NCBI GenBank assembly: GCA_020055645.1
Contig: CM034546.1
Span: 90,768,001-90,832,000 of the forward strand
DNA: 64,000 nucleotides
Direction: 5' to 3'
DNA from: Tomocerus qinae
Taxonomy: Eukaryota; Arthropoda; Collembola; Entomobryomorpha; Tomoceridae
Part shown: positions 48,461 through 64,000 of the stretch, piece by piece
How positions within the stretch are numbered: position 1 is the first letter of the stretch
Layout of the letters: each line of letters starts with the position of its first letter
Made by a program: the position numbers and the translations under genes
The notes under the pieces: model-generated
Database searches by the model: none
Told to the model about the DNA's origin: nothing
Seen by the model: the letters and a program-made list of their open reading frames with translations, nothing else

Positions 48461-49875
48461 AATCCTAGTAATCTAGTAGATATTAAATGTACAAATTAAG
48501 TACATAAAGTACTTCGTCGGCATGTTGTCAGGAGTTTAACAGCGCGGTGACCTTATCACGCTCCTATTTTGCGGAGACATATTATATACAAGATTACTTT
48601 TACTCTTACTTTTACGAAATACTTTTAGCTATACCACTTAAATCAGATATCAGTAGATATGGGCCATGCTAACCTGATTGGTTCATTTTGGTATGCATTG
48701 TTCATTACATTAATGTTAAACTTATTACGAATAAATTAGCTCATAAAATTCTATTACAACATAGTTTCATGATGAAATCGATTGCACATTCTTTCTTAAT
48801 TGCCCAATTATAACCGGATTAGAGGGAATTTGTGAAAACACGTTATTAAAATTGAGTTCAAAATTAATTGCACTAAAATACCTACAAATGAGAGTCTCCA
48901 TTAGACATCAAAAGGACTGTTTAAGCAGGCAATACTAGGAAAAATAGTGGATCAATTTGATATCAATAATAACTCATCCGTCGGGTTATAAAAGATAACT
49001 TTTCAGCATGTGAATTATCGGGTTATTTTATTAGTCAAAGGGTTGAGAAACAAAAACCTGTCAGATATTAGAGTTTTTTTATTAATAGAGTTTACAAGGA
49101 ATAGATGAAGTAATAAATGTACATATAAATATAAATTCTCCTTTAAAAGCCAGCTACCTAGTAAACGGACACAAACACTTAATCATTTTTGATGGGATGG
49201 TAAGAGTTAGGTGAGCTGATCAATAATTCAAGTGGAAGTGTTTAATTATTTTCATGGCTGACTGAATTACCTTAACAAGTTAAAGAGCGAGAGAGAGCTG
49301 AGGGGATTCTATTCCAATGCTCTCAATGCATTTAATATTATAAGGTGGGTATACCACGAGCTTATTTGTAATTCTGTTCAAATGAGAACTGATAGATGAT
49401 ATTTCATGTCCTCCTCTCCTTCTCTACAGACTATCCCAGTTTAAACCCCAAATTGTTAGCAGTGCAGAGAAAGCAAACTACGCTGCTCGTACTCATGATT
49501 TGTTTTGCAATGTCCGTATAACATGTTGAATCTCAATGAGTGTTCTTTATTATATTTATTACATAGATCTTGTAATAATATAAAACAAATATTTTGATGT
49601 CTGCAAGAGCATTAGTCATTAGAGCATTTCCAAGTGGAATGTCTTTTTAACTGCTTCAAATCATTACTTGAAACCACATGAGTGCAAAATAATTTTAATT
49701 TTGCGGTACAGCAATTAGATAAGTAATATATTATAAGCATCTACATAGACACGTGTCCTTTTAATGTTTTGCTTTTGATTGCTTGATAACATATTTTTGG
49801 TATGTACCTTGAAGCAGACCTTTTTAACTTCATATGAGTAGTAATGGCAATTAAACAAAATGTACCAAATCACCC
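48461..49875. other. AT-rich flank left of the viral element
   Basis: No gene recognised. The left end of the Polinton-like element, including the outer part of its terminal inverted repeat, may lie inside this interval. It cannot be placed because the partner repeat is outside the window. Confidence 0.5.
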
Positions 49876-49944
49876 AACCAACCCCCTAAGCCGAGTCTTA
49901 GGGGGTCGGCTGGTTTCACTAGACACAACTGTGTCTAGTGAAAC
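49876..49944. repeat. Two adjoining palindromes near the left end of the element
   Basis: ACCCCCTAAG (49881-49890) and CTTAGGGGGT (49897-49906) are perfect inverted repeats around CCGAGT. The stem extends with AACCA / TGGTT across a 4-base bulge (49876-49915). A second palindrome follows: GTTTCACTAGACACA (49913-49927) pairs perfectly with 49930-49944 around two bases. The palindromes share 49913-49915, so both stems cannot form fully at once. A role as a terminal or replication structure is inference. Confidence 0.8.
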
Positions 49945-50006
49945 AATACCAGAGCGCGTTCATTTAAAAATGAATCGTTCTCTCCTTCATCTTGTGACCA
50001 ACAAGT

Positions 50007-50265
50007 AATTGTTAAAGGTTTACTCTACTTGTCGCCAACAGTGAAGACGAATTTGGAACAGCCGTGGGTGAATTTGTCAAAGATAGACAGCAAATTGTTG
50101 AAGGTTTACTACCATAATTTCACGGTGAGGACGAATTTGGAACAGCCGTAGGCGAATTTGTCAAGATTGTTTTTATTATTTGTGAGTGAAAATTATTGTT
50201 AAAGGTTTACTATCAAATTTCTCACCGAGACGAAATTGCTTGCCAAGCACTTGCCAAGACTGTTT
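50007..50265. repeat. Three diverged direct repeats, ~86-101 bp period
   Basis: ATTGTTRAAGGTTTACT begins copies at about 50008, 50094 and 50195. Copies one and two also share a 39-bp block (50043-50081 and 50127-50165) with only four differences. The third copy keeps the first part, then diverges. The repeats lie just upstream of the proposed start of the spliced membrane-protein gene and could belong to its promoter or to the inner part of the terminal repeat. The four differences in the shared block are all at third positions of one reading frame. Confidence 0.7.
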
Positions 50266-50278
50266 TCATTAATCAAAG

Positions 50279-51347
50279 ATGTCAGGTATGAAAACAATTA
50301 TTTCAAATTATTATTATTATCATTGGTATTTGTTACAATAGACTATTCATTCGGAATCAGATGCGATAAACGGTTTCCCACAATCGGTTTCTGGAAGAAA
50401 CCGATTGTGGGAAAATGTCTATTTAGAATCAGATGCAATAAACGGTTTCCCACAATCGGTTTCTGGAAGAAACCGATTGTGGGAAATTGTCTAATTAGAA
50501 TCAGATGCAATAAACGGTTTCACACAATCGGTTTCTGGAAGAAACCGATTGTGGGAAAACCTCTATTTGAATTTATTATTTATTAAATGAAAAAATTATT
50601 TTTTAGGTTGTAATTTGACAATGCTATGCCGCCAATGTGCCAATATGGGGTGCTGGTTTGCCCGTTATATGAACGGTACAAGTGGATGCTTTCCTTCTGA
50701 AGGAGACATTGGCCCATCGTCCTACTACATAGGACCACATTTATCAGCCAGATGCCCTTCCTTTACTCCAACATCAGTACAGTCAACAACTAGTGAAGTT
50801 GAAAATGAAGGTGGTGGTGGGCAAATTTATGCTGGTAAGAATTATTTAATTAAAGTATTAAAAATTGCCTTTTATAAATTCAACCAAAAATTAAAATTAA
50901 AAATATTTTTTTAAATTCCCCAAGGAATCGCAATTGGCGTGGTAGTAGGCGTGGCGATGGCAGGGGGCGTCGTCTACCGTTATGGACTACGTGTCGTCCC
51001 TGACACATATCTACGTTTTCGCGCTCTTTTGGCCAGGAATGCTGAAGTCCCCCGGAATATGCTCCAAGCTCTACGTCTCTGCGTGACCCGCGCACCTCGG
51101 CCAAACCCGCCAAATGAAATTCCCGCGGAAATAATATCGGATTCTGAAGAAGAAGAAATTCTTGTAAGTTTTTAAATTTATTTTGTAATCATGTCCCTGT
51201 GATAATAAAAATAAATTACAATTTTTTTAGTATCAAAGCCCGATAGCGCCCCCTGCTGTGAGACGTCCCTACCGCACTCGTGAAGTGTCACCAGCGGCGG
51301 AGGTTGGACCCAGCCGCACCCGCTCAGGGGTCCTTATTAAATTATGA
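50279..51347 (+). CDS. Spliced Cys-rich single-pass membrane protein (four exons), unknown function
   Basis: Not recognised as a named family. Proposed coding exons: 50279-50285, 50607-50834, 50925-51163, 51231-51347, giving 196 aa. Donors are CAG|GTATGA, CTG|GTAAGA and CTT|GTAAGT. Each acceptor ends in AG, the first and third after a run of T, and the phases (1, 1, 0) join all frames without a stop. Six Cys fall in the first 52 residues (two as CRQC), then a Ser/Thr-rich linker and Gly run, then one glycine-rich membrane helix (GIAIGVVVGVAMAGG, residues 79-93). The tail has an acidic patch (SDSEEEE) and a Pro/Arg-rich end. No classical signal peptide precedes the Cys region. Exons 3 and 4 look clearly richer in G+C than their neighbours. 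If the 7-nt first exon is wrong, translation could start at 50621 (189 aa). A virion membrane or host-interaction role is inference only. Confidence 0.68.
50354..50569 (+). repeat. Three tandem 72-bp repeats, each with a 19-bp hairpin
   Basis: Exact 72-bp period, units at 50354, 50426 and 50498. In each, arms of 19 bases (left arm TTTCCCACAATCGGTTTCT) flank the 3-base loop GGA: 50374-50392/50396-50414, 50446-50464/50468-50486 and 50518-50536/50540-50558. The first two stems are perfect; the third has one mismatch. The array lies inside the proposed first intron of the membrane-protein gene. The period is 24 codons, so one frame stays open across it, but that frame has no ATG. Confidence 0.95.
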
Positions 51348-51367: not shown

Positions 51368-51373
51368 AATAAA
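51368..51373 (+). terminator. Poly(A) signal AATAAA of the spliced gene
   Basis: Lies 21 bases after the stop codon at 51345-51347. It faces the poly(A) signal of the opposing capsid-protease cluster about 30 bases away. Confidence 0.7.
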
Positions 51374-51974: not shown

Positions 51975-53255
51975 TTACTGTTCAATAGAAACGTTTCGAT
52001 ACTGGTCAATTTCGACAAGACTTTGAAACTGGGCTAGGACAACAACGGTGACAGATGTAGACAAGGCCTTGGCAAACTTTAGATCGAGAGTAATTTTTGC
52101 AGCCTTGTTTAATTGAAAACGACCACCCTTGTTAGATGGTAGTAATGCTAATGCGTAAAGTGTGTTACCTTTTATATAGGTATCTCTATCAATGCCACAT
52201 TCCTTTTGTCCTGCAGAAGAAAGGGTTCTAAAGCCCATCAAATATTGTTTCTTCTCAAAATTAAAAGTTTGAACTTGGTATAACACAGGCTTACCATCGG
52301 CAAACACTCCAATAGATGATAAATCAAAAGGTTGAAAATTAAATGGACTTTTGTTTAAAACACCCGAAAACGCTGAAGAGTCCACGAGTCCAACCACCAT
52401 ATACTCGGGAATTGGCCCCGAGAAAACTGAATCGTTAATAGACGAAAGTTGTCCTTGTGGAATGTTATAAGATTTTAGATTATCGGCACGTATTGGATAT
52501 TTTGCCGGTTCTCTTGTAAAATAGTGTTGCTGACTTGTCAGCATGTGATCATGCAATGTCACCTTTTTAACGTGTAAAACGGCTTTAAGTAGATTAATTT
52601 TGTATGTTTTGGTAGTTGTAGGCGAAGACAGACAAAATTCTGGACGACTTCTTCGTAACCCTATTGTTACAGGGAGGTTGTTAGGTAAATACTTTATTTG
52701 ATCTAATATAGACGATTGAAGGTATCCAACAAATTCCACAACAGACGAACCTGCAATTAAAGCTTTTCGCTTTGTATATCCAGAATTGTTTTGGTTATCG
52801 TCTGGATTAGTGTCAGTATACCATCCCTGCGAAGTGAGAGAACCGTCCTTTTCATCCTTTGAAGTCGTCAATAAAGTTTTAATGTACGCACGATATGGAT
52901 TCATTGACGTAGCATCGGATACGTCTTTCCCATTGACTACAACGTTTACTGAATTTATAAATGTGTGGAGAAAATTGTTTTCCAAAGCCACGTCGTCGTT
53001 TATGCCTAGATTACTACCGTCAGAGTTAACAACTTGAATTGCAATTTGTAAAGGACTGTTTCTCAAGTCGAGATAATGTATTCCATCTCCGAGTATATTA
53101 TACTCGATTGGATTTAACTCGTTTTCAACGCTTGAAAAGGGGAAATAAGGGTGATATTCTTCCGATGAGACGGAGACATCTGTCACCGGTAAATTAAATA
53201 AATCGAGCTCGGGTCTTGCAACTAACGAAGAACCACTAAAAACTTTTCCTTCCAT
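51975..53255 (-). CDS. MCP: Double-jelly-roll major capsid protein (hexon-like)
   Basis: Major shell protein, 426 aa, of the Polinton/adintovirus type (the family also annotated as F54H12.2-like in animal genomes). Family hallmarks run in order: an N-terminal strand region with ELDLFNLPVTDVSV; the first jelly roll with NPIEYNILGDGIHYLDLRNS and NNFLHTFINSVNVVVNGKDV; NPYRAYIKTLL with a following GWYTDT; and a second barrel around LDQIKYLPNNLPVTIGLRRS. Homotrimers of such proteins form pseudo-hexagonal capsomers in the nucleus. The ATG at 53255 fits the family start. It lies 21 bp after the Lys-rich protein gene and 3 bp before the protease gene. No frameshift or stop is seen. Confidence 0.92.
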   Translation of the reverse strand: MEGKVFSGSSLVARPELDLFNLPVTDVSVSSEEYHPYFPFSSVENELNPIEYNILGDGIHYLDLRNSPLQIAIQVVNSDGSNLGINDDVALENNFLHTFINSVNVVVNGKDVSDATSMNPYRAYIKTLLTTSKDEKDGSLTSQGWYTDTNPDDNQNNSGYTKRKALIAGSSVVEFVGYLQSSILDQIKYLPNNLPVTIGLRRSRPEFCLSSPTTTKTYKINLLKAVLHVKKVTLHDHMLTSQQHYFTREPAKYPIRADNLKSYNIPQGQLSSINDSVFSGPIPEYMVVGLVDSSAFSGVLNKSPFNFQPFDLSSIGVFADGKPVLYQVQTFNFEKKQYLMGFRTLSSAGQKECGIDRDTYIKGNTLYALALLPSNKGGRFQLNKAAKITLDLKFAKALSTSVTVVVLAQFQSLVEIDQYRNVSIEQ

Positions 53256-56149: not shown

Positions 56150-57391
56150 TTAGTGCAATTCTTTAACAAGATCTTTAATGTAGAGACCTAATCTTCTCGC
56201 TTCTTTGACTGAGTAAATTTGTGTTGGCCCCGCCCACCCAACGCTACTCCATCGCGAATTAACCCGCTTTAGAATGTGAAACTGATAAACGCCGGTGGGA
56301 AGACGATGTACTCTGAAGGAAATTTTATTGTCCGAAGAGGTATAGGCAACTAACGGATCCCAAAAAGCTTCAGATTTTACTTTCACTCTTTCACCCTCAG
56401 CATTTCTCAACATTGGAATCACCTCATTTTCCTGTGTACATGCAATCTGTTTAAGAACTTTGTGGATATAGCTTGAAATTTCCACCCCGTCATAGGCTGA
56501 AAAGGCTAAACGGCTAGGTTTTCTTGTGCCCTGTTCTTTTAAAACGTGAATGTAAAAGCTGTCACTATCTTCAAAATAACTATGTTTAAACCTAATGCTA
56601 TCAACTTGAACAAAGTTAGTTTGGAAAAAAAGTGGATTGTTAGGTTTATCGCAGTTAGATACCTGAGTTCGAGTTCCAAATGAATCGAGAGACTCCATGT
56701 TGAAATAGTCATCAGGATCAGGTGCATTTCCAGGGGGCTCTGTATCAATCTGCATTGCAGATTCACTTTCACTGCTTATCTCACTGTTAAACTCTGAGTC
56801 CTGAGTGTTCATTTGCTGGGCGTTTTGTTCTTCATTGTCTGGAATTCTTACACCACCAGGGGTTAGAATACCATACCTATACATAGTATCCACGTCGGGG
56901 GAAGATGGTGGAGGTATAGACGATGCTCGATCAACCGGATCTGCCGGTGGTTCAGAAGGCTCTTCAGATCCCGAATCAGGAATTGGACTTAAACTCACTT
57001 GGTCAACTATGGGTGATTGTTGAGAGGTTGATGAGGAAGGCGATGGTTTGTTATTGATTAGAGTTCGAGCTAGTTCAAGAACTTCCTTATAAAGCTGAGG
57101 GTCTAACGTTTTCCTTACCGATGGTGATGATTGATCCGATTCGATGGACGATGGTTTAGAAGGCTCTTCAGATCGTGAAACGGGATTTGGGCTTAAACTC
57201 ACTTGATCAACATTGGATGATTGTTGAGAGGTTGATGAGGAAAGCGTTGGTTCGTTATTGCTTAGAGATCGAGCTAGTTCAACAACTTCCTTATAGAGCT
57301 TAGGGTCTAACATTTTTCTAGTCTTTGTTGGATCGATTTCTCCGTTCAAAGTCTGCTCGACTAATTTCCGTTTAATATTGCTGATGTCCAT
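56150..57391 (-). CDS. 413-aa protein with internal duplication and two beta-alpha C-terminal repeats
   Basis: Not recognised. The N-terminal half is Ser/Pro/Glu-rich and holds a tandem duplication: residues ~27-80 and ~95-148 share LDPxLYKEVxELAR, SSSTSQQS and VDQVSLSP (DNA 57152-57313 and 56948-57109). An acidic linker follows (SEISSESESAMQIDTEPP). The C-terminal ~160 residues form two similar units, each several beta strands then a helix (e.g. KISFRVHRLPTGVYQFHIL...SVKEARRLGLYIKDLVKEL). That order resembles small PC4/PUR/whirly-type single-stranded-DNA-binding folds, so a DNA-binding or transcription role is possible but unproven. A minus-strand TATA box lies at 57437-57445. It is divergent from the plus-strand cassette and upstream of the ATPase gene. 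Confidence 0.7.
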   Translation of the reverse strand: MDISNIKRKLVEQTLNGEIDPTKTRKMLDPKLYKEVVELARSLSNNEPTLSSSTSQQSSNVDQVSLSPNPVSRSEEPSKPSSIESDQSSPSVRKTLDPQLYKEVLELARTLINNKPSPSSSTSQQSPIVDQVSLSPIPDSGSEEPSEPPADPVDRASSIPPPSSPDVDTMYRYGILTPGGVRIPDNEEQNAQQMNTQDSEFNSEISSESESAMQIDTEPPGNAPDPDDYFNMESLDSFGTRTQVSNCDKPNNPLFFQTNFVQVDSIRFKHSYFEDSDSFYIHVLKEQGTRKPSRLAFSAYDGVEISSYIHKVLKQIACTQENEVIPMLRNAEGERVKVKSEAFWDPLVAYTSSDNKISFRVHRLPTGVYQFHILKRVNSRWSSVGWAGPTQIYSVKEARRLGLYIKDLVKELH

Positions 57392-58983: not shown

Positions 58984-59212
58984 GTTAAAACCATTCTATT
59001 CATTCAAATGTTTTGAATCATTCGGATAATACGAATTGATTAGATTGATCCGAATTGATTAGATTGATCCGAATTGATCAGATTTATCTGATTGATCAGA
59101 TTGATCAGATTGATCTGATTGATCAGATTGATCCGAATTGATCAGATTGATCAGATTGATCCGAATTGATCAGATTGATTCGAATTATTCGAATGATTAG
59201 AATGATTTTAAC
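58984..59212. repeat. TGATCA-rich minisatellite inside an imperfect inverted repeat
   Basis: About 59031-59180 is built from variants of GATTGATC, joined as GATTGATCAGATTGATC or GATTGATCCGAATT. TGATCA is its own reverse complement, so many alternative hairpins are possible. The flanks 58984-59019 and 59177-59212 pair in inverted orientation at 30 of 36 positions, so the whole block can fold. It sits exactly between the convergent ends of the plus-strand cassette and the integrase gene. Confidence 0.9.
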
Positions 59213-59223
59213 GGTTTGAATAA

Positions 59224-59229
59224 TTTATT
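59224..59229 (-). terminator. Poly(A) signal (minus strand) after integrase
   Basis: TTTATT on the plus strand, AATAAA on the minus strand, about 69 bases beyond the integrase stop. Confidence 0.5.
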
Positions 59230-59297: not shown

Positions 59298-60281
59298 TCA
59301 CTTGTTATCTAAAACTGATTTTCTAGATAAATTTGCAACTCTCTCGTCGACGGCTTGTAACTGATCCTCATAAAAAATTCCTTCAATATCATTTGACGGA
59401 GTGGCCATATCCCGAACATTATATGTCACTGGTTTTGTTTGAAGCACTTTACTTACTATAAACACTTCTTGCGTCCAATTAAACGTGTAGGATTTCATAA
59501 ATAGTCTCTTAACCGTTGACAATCGAACATATTGCCCAACTTTTAGTTTAGGCTTGGCATATTTCTCTTTTGACCGTTTTTCAAAAACGTTATTCCAGAC
59601 CACACTTGCATTATCTTCTAGATATACTTCATTAGGAGTCATGCCAATCCCATGGTGAAATGAATTATTATAACTGTTTACGACTCCATTTAAGACATCA
59701 ATCCATTTATTGTTTTTTCTATGAGTAAAAATACGTTGTAAACGATATTTTATGGTTCTATTTACACGTTCAACATTTGCAGCTTTCATCTCACTATTAG
59801 TACTATAAAGTTTTATGTTTTTCGTCTTTAAAAACTGTTCCATTTGCTTGTTCCAAAATTCCCCTCCCAAATCCGCAAATAATTGACGTGTTGACCTTAG
59901 TTCCTTGTTTCTTTTGAAAATAGTTTTCAAAGCCTCGAGCGTCGATGCCCCCGTTTTATTTTTCAACGGTTCGGCATACAGTTTTCTGGAAAATGCGTCC
60001 ATAACCATTAGAATCCATTTAAATGATTTATTCTCAGAGCTATATGCCGAGTAATCCACTAAATCCATGGCTAATAAGTCGCCCACAAAATTAACTTGAA
60101 TATGTCGTCTCTGTTTAATTATTTTTTTCGCTGGTCTATGCAAACTATACGCATCCAACAAATTTAATTCTTTTTCCACAAGTCTTTTATTTTTAAAAAC
60201 TGTATTTTTTACAAATGTATCCACGCCCCCAAAGCTACCAGGGAGATTGGTTTTCACATATCGCGCTTTAACAGTCGCCAT
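59298..60281 (-). CDS. INT: Polinton retrovirus-type integrase (rve/DDE)
   Basis: 327 aa. Inserts the element DNA into the host chromosome in the nucleus. The N-terminus has the Polinton-specific LLDAYSLHRPAKK block before the catalytic core. The core acids are Asp73 (AMDLVDYS), Asp137 (LFADLGGEFWN) and Glu171 (KAANVERVNRTIK), with 33 residues between the last two by my count. NSYNNSFHHGIGMTPNEV closes the core. An SH3-like region follows (LKVGQYVRLS...YTFNWTQEVFIVSKV...GIFYEDQLQAV). The protein ends soon after; the chromodomain seen in some Polinton integrases is absent. The start ATG directly abuts the stop of the 586-aa gene (0-bp gap). Intact. Confidence 0.95.
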   Translation of the reverse strand: MATVKARYVKTNLPGSFGGVDTFVKNTVFKNKRLVEKELNLLDAYSLHRPAKKIIKQRRHIQVNFVGDLLAMDLVDYSAYSSENKSFKWILMVMDAFSRKLYAEPLKNKTGASTLEALKTIFKRNKELRSTRQLFADLGGEFWNKQMEQFLKTKNIKLYSTNSEMKAANVERVNRTIKYRLQRIFTHRKNNKWIDVLNGVVNSYNNSFHHGIGMTPNEVYLEDNASVVWNNVFEKRSKEKYAKPKLKVGQYVRLSTVKRLFMKSYTFNWTQEVFIVSKVLQTKPVTYNVRDMATPSNDIEGIFYEDQLQAVDERVANLSRKSVLDNK

Positions 60282-62062: not shown

Positions 62063-64000
62063 TCACTGAATTGAATCCACATCCGTTGCTGTATTTTGAG
62101 CAATTTGTTCCAGTTGCCTTCGTCTGTGCATAGCAATATCTGGATGTCCATAGGGTAACGAAGATATATTGTTTATCATAAATCGTTTTGTATTTATTGG
62201 GGTAAATGCAACTTTCATACCTCTTTTGCTATAAAGTTTAAAATCTTCGCTGCGGATATTGTAGACCGGTAATCTTAAAATTTCGTCGTTTAATACAATT
62301 TTTTCATAGTCCTCGTGTTTTATTTCTTTTAAACTAGACCCAGGTATTCCTCGGCATCGAACTTCATGACCATCATTTTCTGAAGTCTCCAGATCGTGTT
62401 TAAGTATACTGTAGCATTTACTTGCAATCGCACAATGTTTTTTAACGTGTAATACTTCACACTTTAGTAAGCCTGCTTGAGATTTTCTTGAAACATCATA
62501 CAACTCATGGTGTCTTGGAAGATTACTAAAATCAAACATTGAAGATATCTGCTTTAGTTTCCTCATATAACTATTTTCTCTGTCAATTACGGAATAAATA
62601 ATTGAATCAGTGTCTGTGTACAGAATTGTAATGTTTTCTGCCCCAAACGTTGGTATCAAACCGGGAATAGTGCCATCTATGGAACCATAAATTTGGTTAT
62701 ACAATGTCAGCTTGGAATTGAAAAGGGTGATAGTCCCAATAATTTGAGCCTTATCCATTTTGACTGTCATTTTCTGCATTTGAAATATTGAAACGTTGTC
62801 TGAAAGTATGGTCACATCTTTAAAGTTACATTTCGACATCAACTCTTCACACAATGCTCTACTTGTACAGATACGAGTTTCCGATTTTTCCCTAAATTTT
62901 TGCAGGGCTTTTCCAAAACAGGCATTAGGATATAACTTTAAAAGTTTTTTTATAATTTCAGATGATGCGTTTCTTCTAAGTTCGATGTTTAGATTAATGT
63001 AATCAGCCATAAATGCCTCCTGTTTAAACTTTATTCCCCTAACTCTTCGTGTAATTTCTATTCCATGGTGTAGAAAGAATTTTAAAAGACGGTAATAGCA
63101 AACATACTCAGTTTTCGATTCAACCGTTAATAACAACTTTTTTGCAGTTAATACATTTTTAACATCGTTTTTAAATTTTCTTATGTGATGTTTTTGCACT
63201 TCTGACAGCTCTTCAAACTCAACTTTCCTAGTTATTGGTAGAAATGGAAACTGTTCTGTTTTCCTTGCTAGTTCAGGGCTATAATAAAGGTCCAGTTCAA
63301 AAATGTAGCCAACGGGCGAGTCCTCGGGTATTGCCATAATGTCAATTGTTTGAAGCTCTTCGTCCGTCATCCATTCGAATTGAGAGACCCCTAGCGGCTG
63401 CGATAAGCTGTGGGCATATAGACTGTTCAAGTCGGTGTATGTAATATACTTTCTAGGTTCTTCAGGTCTGTAATTCCCACATATTTCATTATTGGCAATC
63501 GCTATGCGATCATTTACGTGAACTATACCACCTTGTATAGACCGTTCAATAAGGTTTACCATTTCAATGTCTTTGATAATTTCTATCTGGACGCCTGTAT
63601 AATTCAACATCGCATTCCAAGAATGAGCTGGCAACGTAAAAAACGAATATGGATTAAGCTTATGAGTTGACATGATCTGTCTCCTGAAATATGTGACAGC
63701 TTCTGCGAGCAATATCACATCAGTTTTCTGATACAATAACAAATAGTCTCGTATTGTTTGACAATTAAACTCGCGCCAAACATCCTGGGCGTGTTGATAT
63801 TCTTCCATTGTGACGCCACTTTGCTTGACGCTAGAATAAAACTGACAGATTTCCGGTAAACTTCTTTCCTCAAGTTTAGAAGGGTGGGATAAGTATTCAT
63901 AAGGAAAAATTCCTTTTCTCGTTAGCAGATTAATTTGATTGTCGCTTATTCCATCAAATGCCGTCCGCAATATATCAAAGGGCATTCCATCTCCCTTCAA
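62063..64000 (-). CDS. PolB: Protein-primed family B DNA polymerase, C-terminal part (gene runs off the window)
   Basis: 645 codons visible; the N-terminus lies beyond the right edge. Replicates the element from terminal-protein primers. Visible in order (fragment numbering): GIFPYEYLSHPSKLEERSLP (30-49); exonuclease motif III YQKTDVILL (90-98); PAHSWNAML (124-132); the SIQGGIVHVNDRIAIANN block linking the exonuclease and polymerase parts; polymerase motif A YTDLNSLY (188-195); motif B KLLKLYPNACFGK (352-364); motif C YTDTDSIIY (461-469) with both catalytic Asp; and a basic block near KHCAIASKCY. The long insertions around motif A and between motifs A and C fit protein-primed enzymes. No internal stop. 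It ends 20 bp before the 586-aa gene. Confidence 0.95.
   Translation of the reverse strand: MKGDGMPFDILRTAFDGISDNQINLLTRKGIFPYEYLSHPSKLEERSLPEICQFYSSVKQSGVTMEEYQHAQDVWREFNCQTIRDYLLLYQKTDVILLAEAVTYFRRQIMSTHKLNPYSFFTLPAHSWNAMLNYTGVQIEIIKDIEMVNLIERSIQGGIVHVNDRIAIANNEICGNYRPEEPRKYITYTDLNSLYAHSLSQPLGVSQFEWMTDEELQTIDIMAIPEDSPVGYIFELDLYYSPELARKTEQFPFLPITRKVEFEELSEVQKHHIRKFKNDVKNVLTAKKLLLTVESKTEYVCYYRLLKFFLHHGIEITRRVRGIKFKQEAFMADYINLNIELRRNASSEIIKKLLKLYPNACFGKALQKFREKSETRICTSRALCEELMSKCNFKDVTILSDNVSIFQMQKMTVKMDKAQIIGTITLFNSKLTLYNQIYGSIDGTIPGLIPTFGAENITILYTDTDSIIYSVIDRENSYMRKLKQISSMFDFSNLPRHHELYDVSRKSQAGLLKCEVLHVKKHCAIASKCYSILKHDLETSENDGHEVRCRGIPGSSLKEIKHEDYEKIVLNDEILRLPVYNIRSEDFKLYSKRGMKVAFTPINTKRFMINNISSLPYGHPDIAMHRRRQLEQIAQNTATDVDSIQ

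What the first reader, a model, noticed from the sequence alone, without database searches (positions are those of the whole stretch)
50279..51347. Spliced, four-exon membrane-protein gene in a largely intronless element
Three GT-AG introns join four frames without a stop, starting from an exon of only seven coding bases. The product has six Cys before one glycine-zipper membrane helix and an acidic then Arg-rich tail. Its coding exons look richer in G+C than the element, which suggests capture from elsewhere. This is my best candidate for an undescribed component: a virion membrane or host-interaction protein.
Basis: partly seen in the sequence, partly recalled or inferred. Interest (0 to 1): 0.8.

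Follow-up and report, generated by a model that had tools for sequence, protein, structure and literature searches.

The report
Spliced membrane-protein gene of a Polinton
A virus-like mobile element carries, at one end, a real four-exon gene for a small membrane protein whose splice points are conserved in distant relatives of the element; some lineages do without it, so it looks like an accessory tool for dealing with the host.

Summary
Four exons joined by three GT-AG introns lie between the left end and the protease gene (PRO) of a 20.6-kb Polinton/Maverick-type element. Diverged relatives in the same genome give the test. Three lineages (A: window plus one copy; B: 4 copies; C: 1), 26-49% identical per exon in A against B or C, share all three intron positions and phases (1,1,0), a short MS- first exon, six cysteines, a GxxxG helix, an EIISDSEEE tail motif and a TRSG end. 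Between B and C exon 3 has 12 synonymous changes to 1 non-synonymous. Two other recently multiplied lineages (D, E) have only 332-429 bp between end and PRO and lack the gene; 3 of 4 B copies have a broken exon 3. B and C are near-identical from exon 3 rightwards but strongly diverged from the left end to intron 2: a block with the ectodomain was exchanged. No relative was found outside such elements in the collections searched. Best reading: an accessory, probably N-out host-interaction membrane protein with an exchangeable Cys-rich ectodomain and constant tail. Gene, conservation and exchange are shown; topology and function are inferred; recent capture is not shown.

The parts
49831..49836 (.). 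6-bp target-site duplication CATATG; its twin lies beyond the window at L006:426-431
49837..49981 (.). left terminal inverted repeat, begins AGTAGTAATGG; partner beyond the window at L006:281-425; element about 20,589 bp
   Evidence: (89% over 151 bp, duplication included)
50279..50285 (+). exon 1, seven coding bases (MS + phase 1)
   Evidence: B and C also begin ATGTC- and end in phase 1 (22 and 25 nt)
50286..50606 (+). intron 1, phase 1, with three 72-bp palindromic repeats
50607..50834 (+). exon 2, symmetric 1-1 exon: six-Cys domain with two N-x-S/T sites
50835..50924 (+). intron 2, phase 1
50925..51163 (+). exon 3: GxxxG membrane helix, PDTxLRxRAxLxRN stretch, EIISDSEEE acidic motif
51164..51230 (+). 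intron 3, phase 0
51231..51347 (+). exon 4: Arg/Pro-rich end with TRSG, stop included
51368..51373 (+). poly-A signal AATAAA
51474..51971 (-). convergent adenovirus-type protease (PRO)
   Evidence: Peptidase_C5, E 0.00028, 21.0 bits against cut-off 21.3
51975..53255 (-). capsid protein, 493 relatives in the protein collection, two of the 120 listed named F54H12.2-like
   Evidence: that this name marks Polinton capsid proteins is recalled
59298..60281 (-). integrase (rve)
   Evidence: E 3.3e-9, above cut-off

Best explanation
Shown: a conserved four-exon gene is the first gene inside the left end of three Polinton-type lineages of one genome; its exon 3 is under purifying selection; it is absent beside PRO in other lineages; and the block from element end to exon 2 was exchanged between lineages at the intron 2/exon 3 border. 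Inferred: the product is an accessory single-pass membrane protein, N terminus outside, C terminus in the cytosol. The exon-2 domain, probably held by disulfides, faces the lumen or surface and binds a host (or rival) partner; GxxxG pairs the helices; the tail's acidic cluster of CK2 type and its basic stretch route it through trans-Golgi/endosome traffic or dock it to the element's capsid. Because the ectodomain sits in a symmetric 1-1 exon, elements can swap it by recombination in an intron and keep the tail. In logic it would work like adenovirus E3 membrane proteins (recalled: accessory, spliced transcripts, variable outside).
For: Intron positions and phases 1,1,0 shared by A, B and C at 26-49% identity per exon. 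All six Cys invariant; G-V-x-x-G, PDT-LR-RA-L-RN and EIISDSEEE conserved. Exon 3 B-C: 12 synonymous to 1 non-synonymous, p 6e-7; exon 2 B-C also below neutral, p 4e-8. Net charge before/after the helix -3/+3 in A, -1/+4 in B. Gene in 7 of 30 PRO loci scanned; D and E have no room for it yet recent copies, 98.3% and 99.3% identical. L014 and L015, at different sites, share a broken exon 3. Block exchange.
Against: No expression, topology or binding data. No fold: single-sequence models have pLDDT 48 and 56. N-glycosylation sites are not conserved: two in A, one in B and none in C by eye. The juxtamembrane stretch is not significantly amphipathic. Exon 2 shows purifying, not diversifying, change between B and C, so nothing shows adaptive ectodomain change. 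D and E might carry an unrelated or unrecognised counterpart elsewhere; their other genes were not read.
Confidence: 0.5

Rival explanations
1. Virion envelope or attachment protein: it sits in a membrane around the Polinton particle and serves entry, the Cys-rich ectodomain binding a receptor.
For: It lies next to the protease and capsid genes. Nematode Mavericks are reported to encode a putative fusogen (PMC10680173, passage seen).
Against: Absent beside PRO in D and E, which multiplied recently, and broken in 3 of 4 B copies, though copying inside one genome may not need entry. At about 196 residues it is small for a fusogen. No match to solved structures.
Confidence: 0.25
2. Membrane-active capsid-core protein, the Macc class proposed for midsize linear DNA viruses: it disrupts a host membrane from inside a naked particle during entry.
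For: Some Macc proteins are described as holin-like (PMC11071296, passages seen). A chance-level profile match to adenovirus capsid protein IIIa (E 0.5-1.5). One adenain-like MxGGx word in A, inside the helix.
Against: Six conserved Cys and a conserved acidic sorting-like tail are not expected of a naked-capsid protein; the MxGGx word is not kept as such in B and C (by eye).
Confidence: 0.1
3. Regulatory or nuclear protein whose hydrophobic stretch is not a membrane helix.
For: Basic, Pro-rich tail and a TRSG word also seen as TRSG/LRSG near the start of two small right-end ORFs. The hydrophobic stretch is modest in B (KD15 1.84).
Against: Conserved Cys domain, Gly-spaced hydrophobic helix and opposite charges on its two sides in A and B.
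Confidence: 0.1
4. Chance frame: splice-like words joined by eye in non-coding DNA.
For: 2 of 188 control stretches give as long a spliced frame.
Against: Same intron positions and phases and conserved residues in two further lineages; 12:1 synonymous excess in exon 3.
Confidence: 0.02

Closest known systems
Polinton/Maverick elements (adintovirus-like, Preplasmiviricota)
   Same: Terminal inverted repeats, 6-bp duplication, integrase, adenovirus-type protease, capsid protein
   Different: A conserved spliced membrane-protein gene between left end and protease; the passages found in one review text hold no mention of transmembrane or intron (PMC11071308), which is weak evidence of novelty
Adenovirus E3 membrane proteins (recalled)
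   Same: Logic only: accessory, spliced, small membrane protein with variable outer part and tail signals
   Different: No sequence match to any Pfam family; own gene at the element end; exchange at an intron border
Putative fusogen of nematode Mavericks (PMC10680173, passage)
   Same: A membrane protein carried by a Maverick
   Different: The present protein is far smaller than a class III fusogen (size recalled) and no similarity was seen; a direct comparison was not made
Class 1-1 extracellular modules of animals (PMC8001218, passages)
   Same: Outer Cys-rich domain in one exon flanked by phase-1 introns; exchange at an intron border
   Different: Matches no known module in Pfam; it is in a virus-like element, and the whole left block moved, not exon 2 alone

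Membership tests
Polinton/Maverick element | Terminal inverted repeats and 6-bp target duplication | tested here: met
   (CATATG; second copy AATACT)
Polinton/Maverick element | Retroviral-type integrase | tested here: met
   rve above cut-off
Polinton/Maverick element | Double jelly-roll capsid protein | tested here: inconclusive
   493 relatives, two of 120 listed named F54H12.2-like; the link of that name to capsids is recalled; no PDB sequence match
Polinton/Maverick element | Adenovirus-type protease and packaging ATPase | tested here: inconclusive
   Peptidase_C5 21.0 bits against 21.3; ATPase matches all below cut-off
Polinton/Maverick element | Protein-primed DNA polymerase B | tested here: inconclusive
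   ORF 62063-63985 has no Pfam match at E 0.1; it holds a DTDS word that I recall from PolB
Adenovirus E3-type membrane protein | Sequence match to a known E3 family | tested here: not met
   exons 2-4 of A, exons 2-4 of B and exon 2 of C against Pfam: nothing reached a curated cut-off
Adenovirus E3-type membrane protein | Dispensable for replication, acts on host immunity | not testable with these tools
   absence from D and E and broken B copies are indirect
Maverick fusogen | Fusogen fold, membrane fusion | not testable with these tools
   models too poor; no fold search was run
Adenovirus capsid protein IIIa | Significant profile match | tested here: not met
   best E 0.51, best stretch alone E 4.9-7.7: chance level
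Class 1-1 extracellular module | Domain exon flanked by phase-1 introns on both sides | tested here: met
   A, B and C
Class 1-1 extracellular module | Belongs to a known shuffled domain type | tested here: not met
   no Pfam family

The most novel reading that the evidence does not exclude
Polintons of this genome carry an undescribed family of spliced membrane receptors or decoys whose outer domain is traded between element lineages by recombination at an intron border: virus-like elements using exon shuffling to change what they bind in the host while keeping one sorting tail.
Probability: 0.3. Interest if true: 0.8.

Novelty: new variant of a known kind. Interest (0 to 1): 0.6.

Why it matters
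How animal Polintons meet their host cell is poorly known; a conserved membrane protein with a swap-ready ectodomain exon is a concrete, testable candidate. It also shows a Polinton gene keeping the same spliceosomal introns across lineages whose proteins are below 50% identical, and a block exchange at an exon border in virus-like DNA.

Tried and rejected
Chance frame: rejected. Recent capture from G+C: not supported. Host paralogue: none seen with exon 3 or exon 2; the exon-2 query saw lineage A itself only at E 0.52, so a host relative that distant could be missed. Homologues elsewhere: PRO against 5.8 billion proteins (7 candidates, 0 hits), exon-3 profile (89 candidates, 0 hits), viral contigs with capsid, exon 3, polymerase ORF and capsid profile (none confirmed), PHROGs with exons 2 and 3 of A (none). 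These collections hold few animal genomes and exon pieces miss spliced full-length proteins by the length rule, so absence there is weak. Adenovirus IIIa: chance level. Amphipathic juxtamembrane helix: not supported. Single-sequence folds of exon 2 (pLDDT 48) and exon 3 (56) too poor; no fold search was run. A first global alignment of the two A copies was wrong because one was reversed; one search failed on a file name; redone by BLAST. Literature: ten searches; none of the titles listed is about this gene, and only passages of PMC11071296, PMC11071308, PMC8363768, PMC3743005, PMC10680173 and PMC8001218 were seen; the adintovirus description paper was not held. So a claim that this gene is undescribed rests on these searches alone.

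Full report
What was checked. The window is G000:C1:90768001-90832000 of a 334-Mb genome in 115 contigs. The frame by itself is about a 1-in-100 event: 2 of 188 control stretches reach that length under permissive splice rules. Composition segmentation, blind to splicing but set to seven segments, recovers five of the six borders within 13 nt; the end of exon 3 is off by 34 nt. AATAAA follows the stop by 21 nt and the protease gene (PRO) converges from the right.

The element. Neighbouring minus-strand ORFs include an rve integrase, an adenovirus-type protease just under its cut-off, weak ATPase matches under their cut-offs and a capsid-type protein with 493 relatives. Four of the nine large ORFs scanned had no Pfam match at E 0.1, among them the one I take for a polymerase part. 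The element begins AGTAGTAATGG at 49837 after the duplicated site CATATG and ends beyond the window at L006:425, giving 20,589 bp. A second copy at C1:75138489-75154699 is 16,211 bp with its own duplication AATACT. Over the 3084 bp aligned the two copies are 99.6% identical; inside the element part the five differences fall at about 50304, 50912 and 51228, one in each intron, and two in the capsid ORF, none in the exons. That fits coding constraint but is too few to test.

Conservation. Exon 3 as a protein query found seven places: the two A copies and five diverged ones without stops. Exon 2, exon 4 and a convergent PRO (54-55% identical) lie beside exon 3 in all five (the exon-4 matches alone are weak, E 0.7-0.8). 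Reading L012 (lineage B) and L011 (lineage C) shows the same gene: a first exon that starts ATGTC- and ends in phase 1, phase-1 introns on both sides of exon 2, a phase-0 intron before exon 4, which starts with the same Tyr codon, and a stop just after TRSG. Intron lengths differ (A 321/90/67, B 231/98/144, C 110/116/131). Identity A-B is 19/66 in exon 2, 37/76 in exon 3, 12/38 in exon 4; A-C is 18/68, 37/76, 13/38. All six cysteines, a Trp, a YxGP and a CP are invariant in exon 2; GxxxG, PDTxLRxRAxLxRN and EIISDSEEE in exon 3. B and C differ in exon 3 by 12 synonymous and 1 non-synonymous change (p 6e-7), and in exon 2 by 36 and 32 (p 4e-8), both below neutral. Synonymous sites between A and B or C are near or beyond saturation.

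Copy state. B has four copies at different sites, C one. Measured against L012 and L011 (314 nt), exon 3 is 313 nt in L014 and L015 and 240 nt in L013, each out of frame, so 3 of 4 B copies are broken there; the one-base change lies in a G run, where an assembly error cannot be excluded. L014 and L015 have different flanks, so the changed version was probably copied. Fragments are L020, L022 and L057 with one stop.

Exchange. B and C match at 301/314 in exon 3, 108/122 in intron 3, 130/141 in exon 4 and 441/450 in PRO. To the left they match poorly: exon 2 147/206 (shuffled 0.72) and intron 2 70/92 (shuffled 0.75) are at background, the 5' part 225/281 (0.80, shuffled 0.73) and the short intron 1 101/108 (0.94, shuffled 0.87) slightly above it; the drop falls within about ten bases of the intron-2 acceptor. 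Exon-2 proteins still match at 41/68. So the left block, ectodomain exon included, has an older split than the right part: a block exchange at an exon border. Fragments L020 and L022 also carry C-type left parts. This does not show selection for change.

Presence and absence. A PRO query found 100 places; loci were given for 30, and all 30 were scanned with exon profiles. The gene was found in 7 of 30 (A two, B four, C one), not in 23; flanks of 1500 bp limit this and many of the 23 are distant. In lineages D (L028, L029) and E (L030, L031), 55-56% identical to A in PRO, the AGTAGT end lies 332-333 and 429 bp from the PRO stop, leaving no room. Their copy pairs are 98.3% and 99.3% identical, so they multiplied recently. 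In the PRO tree the 13-row clade holding A-E is firm (99/99); B and C join D (85/87); A lies outside with weak support (84/73); the program warned of long branches. Loss or transfer of the gene is likely.

Mechanism. Six conserved cysteines ahead of a hydrophobic helix, acidic before and basic after it, suggest N-out, C-in topology; no signal-peptide predictor was run. The tail's SDSEEE resembles CKII acidic clusters that PACS-1 reads (passages of PMC3743005; furin's own sequence is recalled). A symmetric 1-1 exon holding the whole outer domain is the pattern described for exon-shuffled extracellular modules of animals (passages of PMC8001218). With the patchy presence this favours an accessory host-interaction protein over an essential virion protein; a virion role remains possible.

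Limits. No expression data, no animal genome collection, no usable fold, host species unknown. That no homologue was found means none in the collections named.

Noticed in passing
window 50349-50564: Three tandem 72-bp units in intron 1, each a strong hairpin (z -8.6 for one unit folded as DNA); reminiscent of enhancer or origin repeats of insect viruses (recalled).
   Followed up: partly
window 50003-50270: Repeated units upstream of exon 1: GGTTTACT at 50017, 50103 and 50204, and a 43-bp pair at 50038 and 50122; possible promoter repeats.
   Followed up: no
L005:2803-3249 (-): ORF with RING (above cut-off) and BIR (22.4 bits against 22.9) domains: an inhibitor-of-apoptosis-like gene in the same element.
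   Followed up: no
L005:5012-5224 (-) and L005:5764-5979 (+): Two small ORFs near the right end begin with TRSGR / LRSGR words, recalling the TRSG end of the spliced gene.
   Followed up: no
window 56945-57319: A 171-nt direct duplication (87%) inside the ORF 56150-57391.
   Followed up: no
window 59016-59228: Short-unit repeat array of ATTGATC type between two ORFs.
   Followed up: no
whole genome G000: At least 100 places match the protease at E 0.001 or better, from 100% down to about 25% identity: many Polinton lineages in one genome.
   Followed up: partly
window 49880-49945: The terminal repeat holds two palindromes, around CCCCCTAAG...CTTAGGGGG and CACTAGACACA...TGTGTCTAGTG (by eye).
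   Followed up: no
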